DNA of 64,000 nucleotides from Isosphaeraceae bacterium (GTDB taxonomy: Bacteria > Planctomycetota > Planctomycetia > Isosphaerales > Isosphaeraceae): positions 1 to 64,000 of the forward strand of contig JANXSX010000111.1 of assembly GCA_025356475.1 (NCBI GenBank). The letters are read 5' to 3'. The notes under the pieces are model-generated. The model ran no database searches. It saw only the letters and a list, made by a program, of their open reading frames with translations, and was not told the DNA's origin. The position numbers were made by a program, and so were the translations under genes. Positions within the stretch are counted from its first letter, which is position 1. Every line of letters starts with the position of its first letter. Shown piece by piece: positions 1,285 through 58,742 of the stretch.

Positions 1285-2901
1285 TCACGCTTGCTTCTGA
1301 GGAACAGTCGAGGCAGGTGCCAGGTCGGTATTTGCCGGTCCTACGATTACGATACCGAGTGCGTCAAATCGGGAGCCATGACAGGGGCAGTCCCACGTCC
1401 GCGCGGCGGGGTTCCAGGCGACGATGCAGCCCAGATGTGGGCATATTGCTGAGCATTCATGAAGGATCCCTCCATCGTTGCGGTAAACCGCAACCTTGGC
1501 TGTTCCTCGACCGATAATTGCTCCGCTTCCTGGCGGAATCGCATCCACCGAAGTGACTTCTCCCCCGGTCGCGCGATCACCGAATTGGAGCGCGACATCG
1601 ACATTTTCGCGAACGAAATCCCAGGCGGCCTTGAGTGGTTTCCGACTGGGCTCATAAAGTGATTCCCAGGCATTGGACCTTCCCAAGATGAGGTCGGAAA
1701 TCAGCATGCCGGCAATGGTGCCGTGCGTGAGACCCATACCTGAGTCACCGGTTACGATATAGAGATTCTTCTGCCCACTCGGACACTTGCCAATATAGCC
1801 GAGACCATCAAGAGTCTCAAAAACCTGACCAGACCAGTGGTAAGTGACCTCACCAGCCTGAGGAAAACGGGCACGGGCCCATTCTTCAAGATGAGCGAAA
1901 CGGATTTCGGCATCGTGCGCATGTGCGGTCTTGTGGTCTTCACCACCGACGATCAAGAGGTCGTGCTCATCATCGATTGGCTGAGTTCGCACGTAGTGGT
2001 AGGGATCGTCGGTGTCCCAGAACAGGGCCTTGGGCACGAGTCCTCTCGGAATCTGTAAACCAATCGCATAAGTTGTGTAAGGAGCTTGTTTGGTATGGAT
2101 GCCAACAGTGAGATGAATGGGAGAGTTGGTCGCGACCACAATGGCTGTGGCAGAAACGGTTGAGGTCGGTTCGCCGCGAATTTCAACCGTAGGTGCTGAC
2201 CCCCCGGTGATCGCGGATACGTGCTGACCCGTGACGATCTTGCCACCAACCCGCTCAATCGCACGTGTGAGACCATCGAGATATTTGAGGGGCTGAAATT
2301 GGGCTTGGTCTTGATAACGAAGACTCGGGCCAGTCCCTAGTCCATCGATAGGAGCGTGGTCGATACGCTCGATCCCTTTCAGGCCCGCCCGTTCAATCGC
2401 TTCCCATTCTTGATCGATGATCTTCGCGTCCTTGGCGTTGGGGGCGTAGAGGAAGCCTTCAACGAGTGCGAAGTCGCAAGCAATCTGCTCTGTTTCGCAT
2501 GTCTCTTTGATCCAATAGATCGCCGCGCTATGACTTTCGTAGGCGAGCCGAACTGCATCGGAACCCTGGATCCGTTCGATATGCTTGAAACCATCGTCGA
2601 TCGCACTAGACAGGTGGGCCGTGGTTACCGCTGTCTGACCACCACCGATAGGCCCATCGTCGAGAACGAGCACCGACCGGCCCGCTCTTGCGAGTTGGAG
2701 AGCAACCGATAAACCAGCGACACCAGCGCCGACGACGCAAACATCGACTGAGGAAGGGAGTGATCCATTTTGCCGGTTCGTCTCTTGTTGGGCATCCATC
2801 CAAGGCGAACGATTCCACTGTAAACGCTTCATGGAAGTCCACTCTTGAGGTTTGTTTGAGATTGAAGGTAAGGTCCGAGTCTCGCAAGTCGCGACATTCA
2901 C
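1285..2901 (-). CDS. FAD-dependent oxidoreductase with C-terminal Rieske domain
   Basis: A protein of up to 538 residues. A dinucleotide-binding motif (G58-A-G-V-A-G63) opens a DAO/glycine-oxidase-type FAD domain that runs to about residue 410. The last 100 residues form a Rieske [2Fe-2S] domain whose ligands are visible as C487/H489 in CPHLGC and C505/H508 in CPCHGSR. This pairing is known from a family of fused oxidoreductases of unclear substrate. The GTG start at 2901 overlaps the stop of the upstream dehydrogenase (GTGA), suggesting coupling. An internal ATG at residue 24 (2832) is an alternative start and would remove a sequence with no clear function. It is probably cytoplasmic, as no signal peptide is visible. 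Confidence 0.9.
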
Positions 2902-4067
2902 GGCTTCAAGAGAACCTTGATGCAGCCATCTTTCTTATCTCGGAAGGTTTTGTAGGCTGCTGGGGCCTCTTCGAGCGAAAGTTGATGAGTGATAACAAAT
3001 GACGGATCGATCTCGCCCTTTTGAATCTTCTCGAGCAAGAACTTGGAATATTTGGGGACGTGTGTCTGTCCCATTTTGAATGTCAAGCCTTTGTTCATGG
3101 CTGGACCCATGGGAACATTATCAGGGAAACCAATGTAGACACCTGGAATTGAGACGGTTCCCCCCTTTCGACAACACATGATGGCTTCGCGAAGGGCATA
3201 TCCTCGATCGGTCGCGAGCCCTACTGTCTCCTTGGCTTTATCGACCACAGTCTCGAAGCTGCCCGATCCGTGCGCCTCGGCTCCCACGCAGTCGATGCAA
3301 CTATCGGGTCCGCGACCCTTGGTCATATCCATGAGTGTGTCATAAACGTTTTTCTCTTCAAAGTTGATGGTCTCGGCTTTGCCCTGCTCGGCCATGCGGA
3401 GCCGTTCTGGAACGCAGTCGATCGCAATGACTCGCCCGGCTCCGAGCATCCAAGCGCTCCGGATTGCGAACTGGCCGACAGGTCCGCAACCCCAGATTGC
3501 GACCACATCACCAGCCTCGATCTGGGCGTTTTCTGCCGCCATGTAACCCGTGGGGAAGATGTCGGAAAGAAAGACGACCTGTTCATCCGGGATGCCATCG
3601 GGGATCTTCAGGGGACCAATATCGGCGAACGGAACCCGGAGAAACTCCGCCTGACCGCCAGGGTTTCCACCCATCGTATGCGAGAAGCCCAGAAGCCCCG
3701 CCGGTGATTGACCCATCACTTTACGGGCCACCTCTGCGTTGCGGTTGGACTTATCACAAAGCGAATACAGTTGCTTCTTGCAGAACCAACAGTCACCACA
3801 AGAGATCGTGAACGGGACGACAACGCGGTCCCCCGGCTTGAGGTTTGTAATCGACTTGCCAACCTCTTCGACGATCCCCATCGGCTCGTGGCCGATGATG
3901 TCTCCAGGCTCCATGGTTGGCATAAAGCCGTTGTAGAGGTGAAGGTCTGAGCCGCAGATACAGGTCGCCGTGATCCGCACAATTGCGTCACGGGCATCCT
4001 CAATCTTAGGGTCGGGAACTGTATCGACCCGAACGTCTCCCTTACCATGCCAGCAGAGTGCTCTCAT
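2898..4067 (-). CDS. Zinc-dependent alcohol dehydrogenase (MDR superfamily)
   Basis: A 389-residue medium-chain dehydrogenase. The catalytic zinc site is C38 (CGSD), H60 and E61 (GHEPMG). The structural zinc lobe has four cysteines at 90, 93, 96 and 104. The Rossmann motif GCGPVG lies at 193-198. The length and the insert around residues 275-295 resemble the formaldehyde-dismutase/glutathione-independent formaldehyde dehydrogenase branch rather than classical ADH; the substrate cannot be read from sequence. It is the first gene of a two-gene unit with the FAD/Rieske protein, so the two may act in one redox pathway. The 800 bp upstream hold no gene and probably carry the promoter. Confidence 0.92.
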
Positions 4068-27578: not shown

Positions 27579-27998
27579 GTTCCACACTCGTAGAATGTCG
27601 GATGCCTGGTCCATTCCTCAAACGGATCTTAACACGACGGTCTTGGTCGTGTTGGAAAGAAATGGATCACCCGATGTGCGCTCTTGAAGACGATTCCGGG
27701 AGTAGATCCTATGACGGCCCATTCCGCATGAGCTGCCCTGGGTGGCAGACATGAACCAAGGGAACGGGTCGCTATCCGCCGATCGCGTGGAGAATAGACG
27801 CGACCCGGCCAGCGGTCCTCATCCCTCGTGTGTTCGCAAAGCTTGCGACAATATTCGCTGCCCAGGATCATGAGGGATGAGCCAAATTCACGACCGTACG
27901 GGAGATGAAGCTCTCGTCGGTCTGGATTTGTGGGCAGATTCTCTGCCCTGTTGTGAGATGTTTAGGACGAATCGATTTCAAGAAATAGGAGTCACATC
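27579..27998. other. Intergenic region with hairpin
   Basis: This 420-bp gap lies between the ECF sigma start and the rightward broken gene. It holds GGGCAGA-3-TCTGCCC at 27932-27948, about 50 bp before the next start. No gene is supported. Confidence 0.45.
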
Positions 27999-28535
27999 AT
28001 GCGTCCACGCCAAAATCGTTCCTTTCGTCCCGCGTCGCTGGGTAACCAGCCGCTTGAGGCCCGCGTTGTTCTCTCGAACGCATCGGCCTTATTCGTCCAC
28101 TTGCCAGGAGCCTAAGTTCTTTCGGGCAAGATGCTCAGTGACCTGGGTAAGCAAGTCGACCATGCCTTCGTCTCATTTGCGAAAGACTACCACAAGGTCT
28201 GGAAGTCGATCTCGAATTCGCCCAGTCGCGGTTTGGGAGCGACCGATCTCGATCAGCTTAACGCCTATGTCGAGAAGCGCATCACGTTGCTGAACAACCA
28301 GCTTGCAAACAGTATGGGGCGGTTGAGAGGAGCGAGCTCCGATCTCATACCGACCGTGCAGGGAACCGTTTTCGAGATGCAGGATCGACTGACCTCGATC
28401 TCCTCTGTCGCCGAAGCCAAAGGTTCAGGCCGAATGATCGGGTGGGCGCGAGACTCGGTCCGTGGCGCTCAACGGGACTTTGTCCTCGCAGGGATCAACG
28501 ACGGTACATTTTATCCTCAAAAGGGTCATCTGTGA
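27999..28535 (+). pseudogene. Exported-type protein gene with in-frame stop
   Basis: An ATG at 27999 behind AGGAG opens MRPRQNRSFRPASLGNQP followed by LEARVVLS, an N-terminal motif common on large planctomycete surface proteins. After 38 codons a TAA (28113-28115) interrupts, and the same frame continues through VLSGKMLSDLGKQVDHAF to a TGA at 28535. The downstream part (134 codons from an ATG at 28131) is helical and polar (RITLLNNQLANSMGRL, MQDRLTSISSVAEA). The shared frame and good ribosome-binding site show one gene of about 178 codons broken by a nonsense codon. Re-initiation at 28131 is possible but has no obvious Shine-Dalgarno. Function unknown. Confidence 0.6.
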
Positions 28536-28708
28536 TCCCGTTCCCTCGCTAGGTCGTGCTAGCACGCCAGTGCGGTTGCGCCTGCGCGTCAAGTCTGGAG
28601 ATGAGGGTGGCATGAGAGACCACCCCCAACAGAACCTGACATGCGACGATCGCACTGGCAATCAATCATTCCCCGCCTAAATCGATCACCCAGTCCCACA
28701 TAAAATCC

Positions 28709-28854
28709 TAGCGCTCGGCAGTTGGTGCGCGAGTTCGGATTCGTCCGGGGTTGCTCAAGGCCTCTAGGACACCCCGAACTACCAGTTCAGGGCGTAGATT
28801 GCCTTTCCAGACAGCGATCTTTACCCAAATTCGCGCACCAACTGCCGAGCGCTA
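28709..28854 (+). mobile_element. MITE copy 1 (146 bp, terminal inverted repeats)
   Basis: Both ends read TAGCGCTCGGCAGTTGGTGC inwards (24 bp perfect, about 30 bp with mismatches). The whole element matches, in inverted orientation, the one at 58589-58734 at 145 of 146 positions; the sole difference is an A/T after GCGCG near one end. It has no coding capacity for a transposase. TA at both outer edges would fit insertion at a TA dinucleotide as in IS630/mariner-type elements, but a CC...GG extension leaves the exact end open. Confidence 0.9.
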
Positions 28855-29134
28855 GGCAAAGATCGATGAAACCTGCGGTGAGAGCCGTAGGCGTGTATCG
28901 GGCACGCGTCGAGCTCGATGGAATTGGTAAATTGGTCGGAGAAACTTGGTCGGAACCCGCAGGCTCGGGGTACGGTTACGTGAGCATGTGATCAGCATGG
29001 CAATTTTCGGTCGAGGATTCGCACGAAATGGCGACTTTCCGGACAGGCACTCACTAATTACATTCCTTCAGAACGACCGTTCCGGAAGTGTGTTACAGGC
29101 TTAGCATGGGTTCCGAGGCAGGGCAAGCGGGGGC

Positions 29135-29539
29135 TCATGCCGGTGGAAAAACGCCTTCCTTAATCAGCCCACTGCGAAGATCAACGCGGTGGTTAAGGTT
29201 AATTTTCAAGGCGATGATCGTCGCCCGGCCTATGGGCGTTAGACCTACCAGTTTGGGGCCATCCCATTGGAAATGACGTGACCATTTATGCTTACGTGGG
29301 TTAAACAGCGGGGTGATCTTCTTGGTTTTGGAATCAACCCCGGCAACGTTGGGGCCTTTGTGTCGATTGCACGCAAAGCAGGCCAAGCATAAGTTGCCAG
29401 CCCTGGTCAGCCCTTCGTGATGCTCGGCGATAATGTGATCGACCTCGAAAGGCAGATCGTGATTTTCCTGGGATAGCTGGCAGTATTCACAACGCCCGCT
29501 GGCACGCTGCCATACCACTAGTGCCAATGCACGTTCCAT
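29135..29539 (-). CDS. HNH endonuclease
   Basis: A 134-residue protein with an HNH nuclease core: CEYC (residues 18-21) and CFAC (54-57) form the zinc-binding pairs, VDHIIAEHHEG (33-43) gives the catalytic histidine and LCLACFACNRHKG the conserved asparagine. HNH enzymes nick or cut DNA using a metal. The C-terminal half (RKHKWSRHFQWDGPKLVGLTPIGRATI) is conserved in this subfamily as I recall it. The gene starts 6 bp after a small partner gene, so the two form an operon. No phage terminase or restriction genes are adjacent, so its target is unknown. Confidence 0.9.
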   Translation of the reverse strand: MERALALVVWQRASGRCEYCQLSQENHDLPFEVDHIIAEHHEGLTRAGNLCLACFACNRHKGPNVAGVDSKTKKITPLFNPRKHKWSRHFQWDGPKLVGLTPIGRATIIALKINLNHRVDLRSGLIKEGVFPPA

Positions 29540-29545
29540 ACGTGC

Positions 29546-29848
29546 TCAGTGTGCCTTGGCTTTATGGTTCGTGACGTTGCGATCCTTGAGCGAGCAACGA
29601 GCCTTTGATTTCATCAGCGAAATCATATGGCCGACCCGTTCGTAATTATCGATTTCAACCTGCTCAGCAGAGGTGAGCTTTCCTTGCTTAGCTTTAGCCA
29701 GCAGAAGCCGCATCCGATCCATATCGGCATGGGTGAATTCGAGGGCAAGGATCGATTTTGCCGCCGAAATCGATAGGTTTGCCCGGTCTGGTTCAAGTAC
29801 GCGGCCAAAAATGGCCGCTTCGCTAGTGCCTTCATGGGATGTTTGCAT
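29546..29848 (-). CDS. Small helical partner of the HNH endonuclease
   Basis: A 100-residue protein; the ATG at 29848 (MQTSHEGTSEAAIFGRVLEP) is chosen because AGGA precedes it and homologues begin there by my recollection. It is mostly helical: SISAAKSILALEFTHADMDRMRLLLAKAKQGKLT, then VEIDNYERVGHMISLMKSKARCSL. It contains no catalytic motif. Its position directly ahead of the HNH gene, with a 6-bp gap, suggests a dedicated partner, either an inhibitor in a toxin-antitoxin-like arrangement or a specificity subunit. Direction and spacing are what one expects of an antitoxin-first pair, but nothing proves it. Confidence 0.75.
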   Translation of the reverse strand: MQTSHEGTSEAAIFGRVLEPDRANLSISAAKSILALEFTHADMDRMRLLLAKAKQGKLTSAEQVEIDNYERVGHMISLMKSKARCSLKDRNVTNHKAKAH

Positions 29849-30575
29849 AGTGCTTTTTCCTGTCCGGTCGTCGCCCAAAGGCAAATATACCACTTCGGCC
29901 TACCCTAAAGGAACCGAATTCTTTGGAATTGAATGCCGACGATTAGTATATAGTGATGGCAGTAGGGTGAACGGGTCATCCTTGATTGCCAACCAATGTT
30001 TACGAGGATTGGGTAGGATTTTTGCTTCCTCGCTGACCTTATACTCAACTCTGGGGGAACGCAACGGGGACCTCCTGGTTGCCGAGCCTCGACTTGGTCA
30101 TCTGAGAATTTGGAGTGATCGGCGACAGTCCAAAGCATTGTGGTATACTGGATTAAATGGGGAGCGTCTAAGAAAGCTTGGAGTAGGGCCACCTGGTGAC
30201 CAAACGAAGCCATTGGCAAGATGTAGGGGTTGTCACGTGGGCGATATTTTCAAGTGTGTGGTTCTCGGAACAAACCCAATGGCATGATGTGCCGATTATG
30301 ATGGCTCCGAGTCGGCGAGTGCTGAACTACGAAACGAACCCAATGGTATTCTGTAACGATTATAAGACCAACACATCATCGCCTATCTGAATTACGAAAC
30401 GAACCCAATGGTATTCTGTAGCGATTATGACGGCTCCGGCTCGGGCAAGGGAAGGGCCGGGTCGCCCTGGTGGGAAGCTGCCCTCCCAGGGGTCTGGTAT
30501 GGACCCCGCACCCTCTTGATCTCTCGATCGACAACGCGGAGGCAATGCCTTTTGCATGCCTCCACGCTCGTGAGT
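29849..30575. other. Gene-free accessory DNA with direct repeats
   Basis: About 730 bp without a supported gene. The left part (29880-30240) is less GC-rich than the surroundings and may contain the promoter for the HNH cassette. The right part holds three related direct repeats, described separately. Confidence 0.5.
30267..30428. repeat. Three degenerate direct repeats of about 42 bp
   Basis: The unit core GAACCCAATGG..T..TGT..CGATTAT occurs at 30267-30308, 30322-30363 and 30387-30428. The second and third copies match at 40 of 42 positions with a 65-bp period; the first shares GGCTCCG after GATTATGA with the third. The copies are too few, and the intervals too variable, for a CRISPR array. 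Confidence 0.7.
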
Positions 30576-58498: not shown

Positions 58499-58588
58499 AT
58501 GAAGGACGTCATCGATCCCACTACCGGGTAGCCTTTTAGATTTCACAATCCGGTCGATGAAGCCTATGCTCGAGCCCAGGAATTTCCC
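58499..58588 (+). pseudogene. 5' remnant of an unknown gene cut by the MITE
   Basis: A strong AGGAGGG at 58485-58491 is followed seven bases later by an ATG (58499) opening MKDVIDPTTG, then a TAG at 58529, after which the frame would read PFRFHNPVDEAYARAQEF until the MITE at 58589. One base change (TAG from AAG) would give a smooth PTTGKPFRF. The ribosome-binding site and clean peptide show this was a gene, now interrupted twice. Its identity is unknown. The 260 bp before it (58240-58498) hold nothing else supported. Confidence 0.5.
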
Positions 58589-58734
58589 TAGCGCTCGGCA
58601 GTTGGTGCGCGAATTTGGGTAAAGATCGCTGTCTGGAAAGGCAATCTACGCCCTGAACTGGTAGTTCGGGGTGTCCTAGAGGCCTTGAGCAACCCCGGAC
58701 GAATCCGAACACGCGCACCAACTGCCGAGCGCTA
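58589..58734 (-). mobile_element. MITE copy 2 (inverted relative to copy 1)
   Basis: The reverse complement of the 28709-28854 element at 145 of 146 positions, with the same terminal inverted repeats ending in TAGCGC...GCGCTA. Its right end lies within 10 bp of the insertion sequence at about 58744, so one element inserted beside or into the other. It also truncates the gene remnant at 58499. Confidence 0.9.
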
Positions 58735-58742
58735 GGGTTTTT

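What the first reader, a model, noticed from the sequence alone, without database searches (positions are those of the whole stretch)
29135..29848. Two-gene HNH cassette with a small dedicated partner
A 100-residue helical protein of no known family sits 6 bp before an HNH nuclease, partner first, in an accessory zone next to a MITE and a broken gene. I recall similar pairs in planctomycetes and possibly cyanobacteria, which would make it a portable unit. The layout is that of an antitoxin/toxin or a small defence module, but no function is known to me.
Basis: partly seen in the sequence, partly recalled or inferred. Interest (0 to 1): 0.5.

Follow-up and report, generated by a model that had tools for sequence, protein, structure and literature searches.

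The report
Nuclease gene with antitoxin-like partner
A small helical protein and a DNA/RNA-cutting HNH enzyme are encoded back to back, and the same pair recurs in distant bacteria and on their plasmids in a way that looks like a toxin kept in check by an antitoxin, a role not yet tested as far as we could find.

Summary
The pair is real, on the minus strand: partner 29546-29848 (100 aa), 6 nt, HNH 29135-29539 (134 aa). It is not a local oddity. In planctomycetes 98 of 114 distinct partner domains have HNH sequence directly downstream, and 88 of 89 intact HNH genes have a partner-like ORF directly upstream. The pair also occurs in Cyanobacteria, Chloroflexi, Bacteroidota and others and on cyanobacterial plasmids. 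The partners share one helical core, joined in some lineages to other N-terminal domains, one a ribbon-helix-helix of antitoxin type. Decay is lopsided: HNH broken beside a kept partner in 22 cases, the reverse in about 2. The nuclease folds most like PtuB, the HNH subunit of Septu and retron defence, but no PtuA lies beside it. Best reading: a type II toxin-antitoxin-like module with a PtuB-like HNH toxin. Toxicity, neutralisation and target are untested. The papers searched describe PtuB with PtuA; a small-antitoxin version was not found. New variant of a known kind.

The parts
29546..29848 (-). Partner gene (candidate antitoxin), 100 aa, all-helical, first gene of the pair
   Evidence: ORF and translation; homologues in 34 of 99 relatives; model pLDDT 85, helices 10-17, 27-34, 40-54, 60-99
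29582..29740 (-). Helical core of the partner (residues about 37-89) shared by the partner variants; proposed nuclease-binding part
   Evidence: profile-profile matches to three other partner types over this part
29540..29545 (-). Six-base gap between partner stop and HNH start (in frame)
   Evidence: sequence, translation across the stop
29135..29539 (-). HNH nuclease gene (candidate toxin), 134 aa, PtuB-like fold
   Evidence: Pfam HNH 7.5e-9; PADLOC PtuB 4.3e-9; VIA-align Z 10.4 to PtuB
29369..29491 (-). HNH active-site and zinc region: C17/C20, D34-H35, N49, C54/C57
   Evidence: columns conserved in alignments A2 and A3; catalytic and zinc roles from general knowledge of HNH enzymes

Best explanation
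A two-gene toxin-antitoxin-like module. The second gene makes a compact PtuB-like HNH nuclease that would damage the cell's own nucleic acid (DNA or tRNA; not decided). The first gene, just before it on the same strand, makes a small helical protein whose core binds and silences the nuclease. In other lineages the same core is joined to other N-terminal domains, one a ribbon-helix-helix, which would add dimerisation and autoregulation; the window's version is the minimal, core-only one. Plasmid loss, phage infection or stress would free the nuclease. Shown: the pair, its order, its recurrence, the shared core, the lopsided decay, purifying selection in the close pairs tested, the PtuB-like predicted fold. 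Inferred: co-transcription, binding, inhibition, toxicity, trigger and target.
For: Co-occurrence and order: 58 of 76 partner matches by single-sequence search, 98 of 114 distinct partner domains by profile, 88 of 89 intact HNH, 25 of 25 intact HNH in 11 genomes of other lineages, 9 of 9 plasmid loci read, one split by an IS4 element. Mechanical control: an ORF of 70-210 aa ends just upstream of 80 of 89 intact HNH but of 1 of 25 control genes. Coupled reading: 19 of 25 cyanobacterial pairs overlap by 4 nt. Domain swapping on a shared core: profile-profile E 1e-9 with the ribbon-helix-helix type, 3e-14 with the cyanobacterial type, 2e-6 with a third type; FitA-like antitoxin domain, 29.2 bits against a cut-off of 27 on the N-terminal 48 residues of L099, seen at E <= 0.1 in 4 of 7 members. 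Lopsided decay: 22 broken HNH beside a partner against about 2 the other way, P 0.0014 under length-proportional breakage, plus 16 of 114 partner domains with no HNH trace within 600 nt. The two proteins' distances correlate (r 0.77 over 66 pairs, 0 of 2000 permutations). dN/dS about 0.14-0.21 for both genes in the three pairs of loci close enough to measure. Multi-copy and patchy. On plasmids it lies near ParA/ParB, known TA pairs, CRISPR-Cas and integrases.
Against: No experiment on any member was found. PtuB alone, without PtuA, did not stop growth in retron-Eco7 (PMC11555353, passages), so a PtuB-like nuclease may need an activator, and the partner could be that. The window's partner has no recognisable DNA-binding domain. 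The ribbon-helix-helix reading of the common cyanobacterial type is weak (best E 0.61). The interface could not be judged: one tandem-chain model, no error matrix. The decay count depends on thresholds and on draft assemblies. L315 (no partner; lacks one zinc cysteine) and L167 (partial HNH, no partner) do not fit. The co-variation also follows from plain co-inheritance.
Confidence: 0.7

Rival explanations
1. The partner is a positive subunit: it activates, targets or scaffolds the PtuB-like nuclease, as PtuA does in Septu, so the pair is a small restriction-like or abortive-infection defence system rather than toxin plus inhibitor.
For: PtuB-like fold; PADLOC PtuB 4.3e-9; PtuB alone not toxic in retron-Eco7; an anti-phage dCTP deaminase or CRISPR-Cas genes near some plasmid copies.
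Against: Decay is lopsided (22 against about 2) and intact solo partners are frequent, which is not expected if the partner is useless without the nuclease; some partner types carry DNA-binding domains of antitoxin type.
Confidence: 0.17
2. A selfish HNH (homing-like) mobile element with a helper protein.
For: HNH proteins are often homing enzymes (general knowledge); several divergent copies per genome; accessory position in the window.
Against: A dedicated partner is almost always present; no intron or intein around the window's HNH shows in the ORF list; copies in one genome lie in different places and are divergent; nearly absent from phage records, and the 17 viral matches to HNH are partial.
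Confidence: 0.06
3. A domesticated pair with a housekeeping DNA-processing role, no toxicity.
For: Purifying selection on both genes.
Against: Patchy presence (34 of 99 relatives for the partner), many broken copies, plasmid carriage.
Confidence: 0.04

Closest known systems
PtuB, HNH subunit of Septu and of retrons Ec78/Eco7 and Ec83
   Same: Same predicted fold over the whole nuclease (the best, Ec78 and Septu chains: Z 9.7-10.4, 123-130 residues, rmsd 2.9-3.3 A, 14-16% identity); best PADLOC match (E 4.3e-9, residues 10-119)
   Different: 134 aa instead of 205-258 aa in the solved chains; no PtuA ATPase beside it; the partner is a 100-aa helical protein instead
Type II toxin-antitoxin systems with ribbon-helix-helix antitoxins (FitAB/VapBC type)
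   Same: Two genes, small regulator first, coupled start codons, FitA-like domain in some partner variants, multi-copy, plasmid-borne, nuclease lost before partner
   Different: The toxin is an HNH enzyme, not PIN, RelE, MazF and so on; the shared core is a family absent from Pfam; the window's partner lacks the DNA-binding domain
Polymorphic HNH/EndoVII toxins with immunity proteins (PMC3482391, passages)
   Same: HNH nuclease with a small dedicated partner
   Different: Here no secretion or delivery region: the 134-aa ORF is the nuclease alone
NetFlax node D51 (HNH, as in PtuB) paired with ATPase node D29 (PMC10440598, passages)
   Same: HNH of PtuB type in a toxin-antitoxin-like network
   Different: There the cognate is an AAA ATPase, not a small helical protein

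Membership tests
Type II toxin-antitoxin system | Two-gene unit, small antitoxin first, overlapping or near-overlapping genes | tested here: met
   Window 6-nt gap; 19 of 25 cyanobacterial pairs overlap by 4 nt; partner upstream in the pairs counted
Type II toxin-antitoxin system | Antitoxin with DNA-binding domain (common, not universal) | tested here: inconclusive
   None found in the window's partner; FitA-like/RHH_5 domain in some variants; weak for the cyanobacterial type
Type II toxin-antitoxin system | Toxin gene not tolerated without antitoxin | tested here: met
   Indirect, genomic only: 88 of 89 intact HNH have a partner-like ORF; 22 broken HNH with partner against about 2 reverse
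Type II toxin-antitoxin system | Toxin stops growth; antitoxin neutralises it by direct binding | not testable with these tools
   Needs expression and binding assays
Septu (PtuAB) | PtuB-type HNH nuclease | tested here: met
   Fold match Z 10.4 and PADLOC match; similarity, not proof of orthology
Septu (PtuAB) | Adjacent PtuA ATPase | tested here: not met
   No such ORF between about 24000 and 36000 (read by eye); four neighbours scanned give no PtuA
HNH nuclease superfamily | HNH motif with metal and zinc ligands intact | tested here: met
   PF01844 above cut-off; conserved columns present
Secreted polymorphic HNH toxins | Delivery or secretion region fused to the toxin | tested here: not met
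   ORF is 134 aa, nuclease only
Modification-dependent McrA restriction enzymes | Separate modified-base-binding domain | tested here: not met
   Only the HNH unit is present; McrA matched the HNH part alone

The most novel reading that the evidence does not exclude
A large, unnamed class of toxin-antitoxin systems in which one PtuB-type HNH nuclease is held by interchangeable antitoxins built on one helical core, found on cyanobacterial plasmids and in planctomycetes, Chloroflexi and Bacteroidota. The small-antitoxin form could be the simpler relative from which PtuB of Septu and retrons was recruited, with PtuA replacing the antitoxin.
Probability: 0.3. Interest if true: 0.78.

Novelty: new variant of a known kind. 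Interest (0 to 1): 0.6.

Why it matters
If right, genes now labelled only 'HNH endonuclease' and 'hypothetical protein' (as on the plasmid records read) form one widespread toxin-antitoxin family with an HNH toxin, and link plasmid or genome addiction modules to the PtuB effectors of Septu and retrons. It is directly testable with two short genes in a laboratory strain.

Tried and rejected
Partner against Pfam, NCBIfam, PADLOC and PHROGs: nothing above cut-off. Partner against solved structures: chance-level helical matches and ynzC; its fold search is uninformative and no family is excluded by it. MITE as carrier of the pair: none of the matches lies on the contigs' other two partner places of the genome (C46, C147). 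Phage carriage: no partner match in phage records or IMG/VR; 17 viral HNH matches were partial. Toxin swapping: one solo partner is followed by a DUF4365 gene (L073), a single case, not used. Promoter scan: one promoter-like site, on the other strand, and two terminator-like sites, no more than in shuffles. The third partner type looked HicB-like to me from memory, but Pfam gives no HicB match, so I do not claim it. Rows left out: L188-L190 (3 of 48, weak) were not checked for partners; loci existed for 30 of the places listed (at most the best few per genome), for 30 of the places listed; planctomycete HNH places were fetched for most, not all; L163's HNH row was dropped from A6 because of stops; broken or contig-edge copies are counted apart. 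The models for partner types were built partly from ORFs found upstream of HNH in the planctomycete set, so, not, is the more independent test.

Full report
What is there. On the minus strand the window carries a 100-residue gene (29546-29848) and, 6 nt on, a 134-residue HNH gene (29135-29539). The HNH protein passes Pfam's cut-off for PF01844 and keeps the residues that are conserved across its relatives (CxxC, DH, N, CxxC, and a C-terminal signature around PLFNPR, W, HF, GR, N). The partner belongs to no family in Pfam, NCBIfam, PADLOC or PHROGs.

Is the pair more than chance. Among 99 related genomes the partner is found in 34 and the HNH protein in 39. By single-sequence matches 58 of 76 partner places have HNH just downstream, and 43 of the 49 strongest HNH places have the partner just upstream. 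With profiles, on 211 loci from planctomycete genomes (duplicates removed by DNA identity), 118 HNH groups at E below 1e-14 fall into: intact HNH with partner 70; intact HNH without a match to this partner profile 19; broken HNH with partner 22; broken HNH without 3; at a contig edge 4. Reading upstream of the 19: 18 have another small ORF ending 5 to 32 nt before the HNH domain, of four further types; one, L315, has none and its HNH lacks one zinc cysteine. Of 114 distinct partner domains, 98 have HNH sequence within 600 nt downstream and 16 do not. As a mechanical control, an ORF of 70-210 aa ends next to the start in 80 of 89 intact HNH genes but in 1 of 25 FmdB-like genes from the same family.

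How far it spreads. One scan of GTDB genome contigs gave 48 HNH relatives in Planctomycetota, Chloroflexi, Cyanobacteria, Bacteroidota, a deltaproteobacterium, a proteobacterium, a thermoanaerobaculian and a few weak others. Of 45 examined, 38 have an upstream ORF that matches the partner profile; of the seven others two (L171, L179) have the third partner type, one is at a contig edge, one (L167) is a partial HNH without partner, and three are weak HNH matches. In 11 genomes reached from those loci, all 25 intact HNH genes examined have a partner upstream. In cyanobacteria the longer partner form is in 32 of 116 genomes sampled; 25 of 30 loci read have HNH next to it, 19 of them with a 4-nt overlap; 4 of the 25 HNH are truncated or in pieces. 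In the wider phylum sample the window's partner type is rarer, 10 of 294 genomes.

Partner anatomy. The types share a helical core (residues about 37-89 of the window protein). Profile-profile comparison links it to a type with an N-terminal ribbon-helix-helix (E 1.2e-9, 72 columns), to the cyanobacterial type (E 3.2e-14) and to a third type (E 2e-6); two further types match more weakly as single sequences (E about 7e-5). The ribbon-helix-helix is supported by Pfam's antitoxin FitA-like model (29.2 bits against 27 for the N-terminal piece of L099; 25.5 for the whole protein; 4 of 7 members at E <= 0.1). For the common cyanobacterial type the same reading rests on the look of the sequence and one match at E 0.61. 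A conserved part with interchangeable DNA-binding heads is how many antitoxins are built (general knowledge).

Lopsided decay. HNH is broken while the partner is kept in 22 cases; the reverse was seen in L110, where the partner carries a stop, and L315, about 2. If breaks fell in proportion to length, 22 or more of 24 has P 0.0014. In addition 16 partner domains have no HNH trace; two of these are themselves decayed (L064, L071). The window's own genome shows the pattern: one intact pair, one solo partner (C46) and one decayed partner (C147). A toxin that cannot live without its antitoxin predicts this; a useful subunit does not. Draft-genome errors should hit both genes alike. Two more facts fit a linked unit under selection: distances of the two proteins correlate over 66 pairs (r 0.77, 0 of 2000 permutations), and dN/dS is 0.14-0.21 for both in the three pairs of loci close enough to measure.

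Structure. The two proteins were folded as one chain by reading the stop between them as glycine: mean pLDDT 86.9, pTM 0.72, both parts confident, linker not. No error matrix was available, so no interface is claimed. The nuclease part aligns over its whole length with PtuB of retrons and Septu (the PtuB-type chains listed: Z 7.2 to 10.4; the best six 9.7-10.4 with 123-130 residues at 2.9-3.3 A), above all other HNH enzymes listed (Z 5.8 or less). Foldseek alone gave only marginal matches (best E 7e-3, HNH domains of Cas9). PADLOC's best matches are PtuB models. PtuA is absent near the pair. From passages read: retron-Eco7 PtuAB degrades tRNA-Tyr, and Septu PtuAB was reported to cut DNA; PtuB alone was not toxic (PMC11555353); a second paper reports tRNA-Tyr cleavage by a Septu system that needs both the ATPase motifs and the H-N-H residues (PMC13096335). 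So the target here could be DNA or tRNA.

Plasmids. A cyanobacterial HNH query matches 34 plasmid records. Nine regions were read: all nine have the partner, in one case separated from HNH by an IS4 element. Neighbours within about 5 kb include ParA, ParB or ParM, annotated toxin genes or pairs (BrnT; HicAB; a nucleotidyltransferase with a DUF86 protein, which I recall as the HEPN-MNT pair), Cas genes and integrases. The partners are annotated 'hypothetical protein', the nucleases mostly 'HNH endonuclease'. This is the company toxin-antitoxin modules keep, but no counts against random genes were made.

What is known. The 2009 survey of type II systems (PMC2701414) has no occurrence of 'HNH' in its main text. 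The NetFlax study places the PtuB-type HNH with an ATPase (PMC10440598, passages). One passage of PMC11980606 and passages of PMC3482391 concern other HNH proteins. Searches of open-licence full texts for HNH with toxin-antitoxin terms (listings only unless named here) gave no description of this pair. Subscription papers and preprints are mostly not held, so 'not found' is all that can be said.

Verdict. It works most likely as a toxin-antitoxin module with a PtuB-like HNH toxin (0.7). It is not a Septu member, because PtuA is missing. Whether it is formally a type II system needs toxicity and binding tests.

Noticed in passing
window 28707-28857 and 58583-58741: MITE with a long terminal-inverted-repeat hairpin; about 29 near-full copies in the genome at 86% identity or more.
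   Followed up: partly
window 30199-30432: Four copies of a repeat about 39-42 nt long spaced 64-66 nt, just upstream of the pair; related arrays on at least eight other contigs of the genome. Not explained.
   Followed up: partly
window 27980-28535: Decayed gene, by eye a secreted planctomycete-type protein broken by an early stop.
   Followed up: no
L073, reverse strand, positions about 2210-3064 counted on that strand: A solo partner is followed about 10 nt later by a DUF4365 gene: possibly the same antitoxin core with a different nuclease.
   Followed up: no
L375 (Nostoc CENA543 plasmid) and L374 (Nostoc edaphicum plasmid): The pair sits 59 nt from a ParB gene in one plasmid and between two cas1 genes in another.
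   Followed up: no
G000:C46:8570-8836 and G000:C147:45587-45856: The window's genome also holds a solo partner and a decayed partner without HNH.
   Followed up: yes
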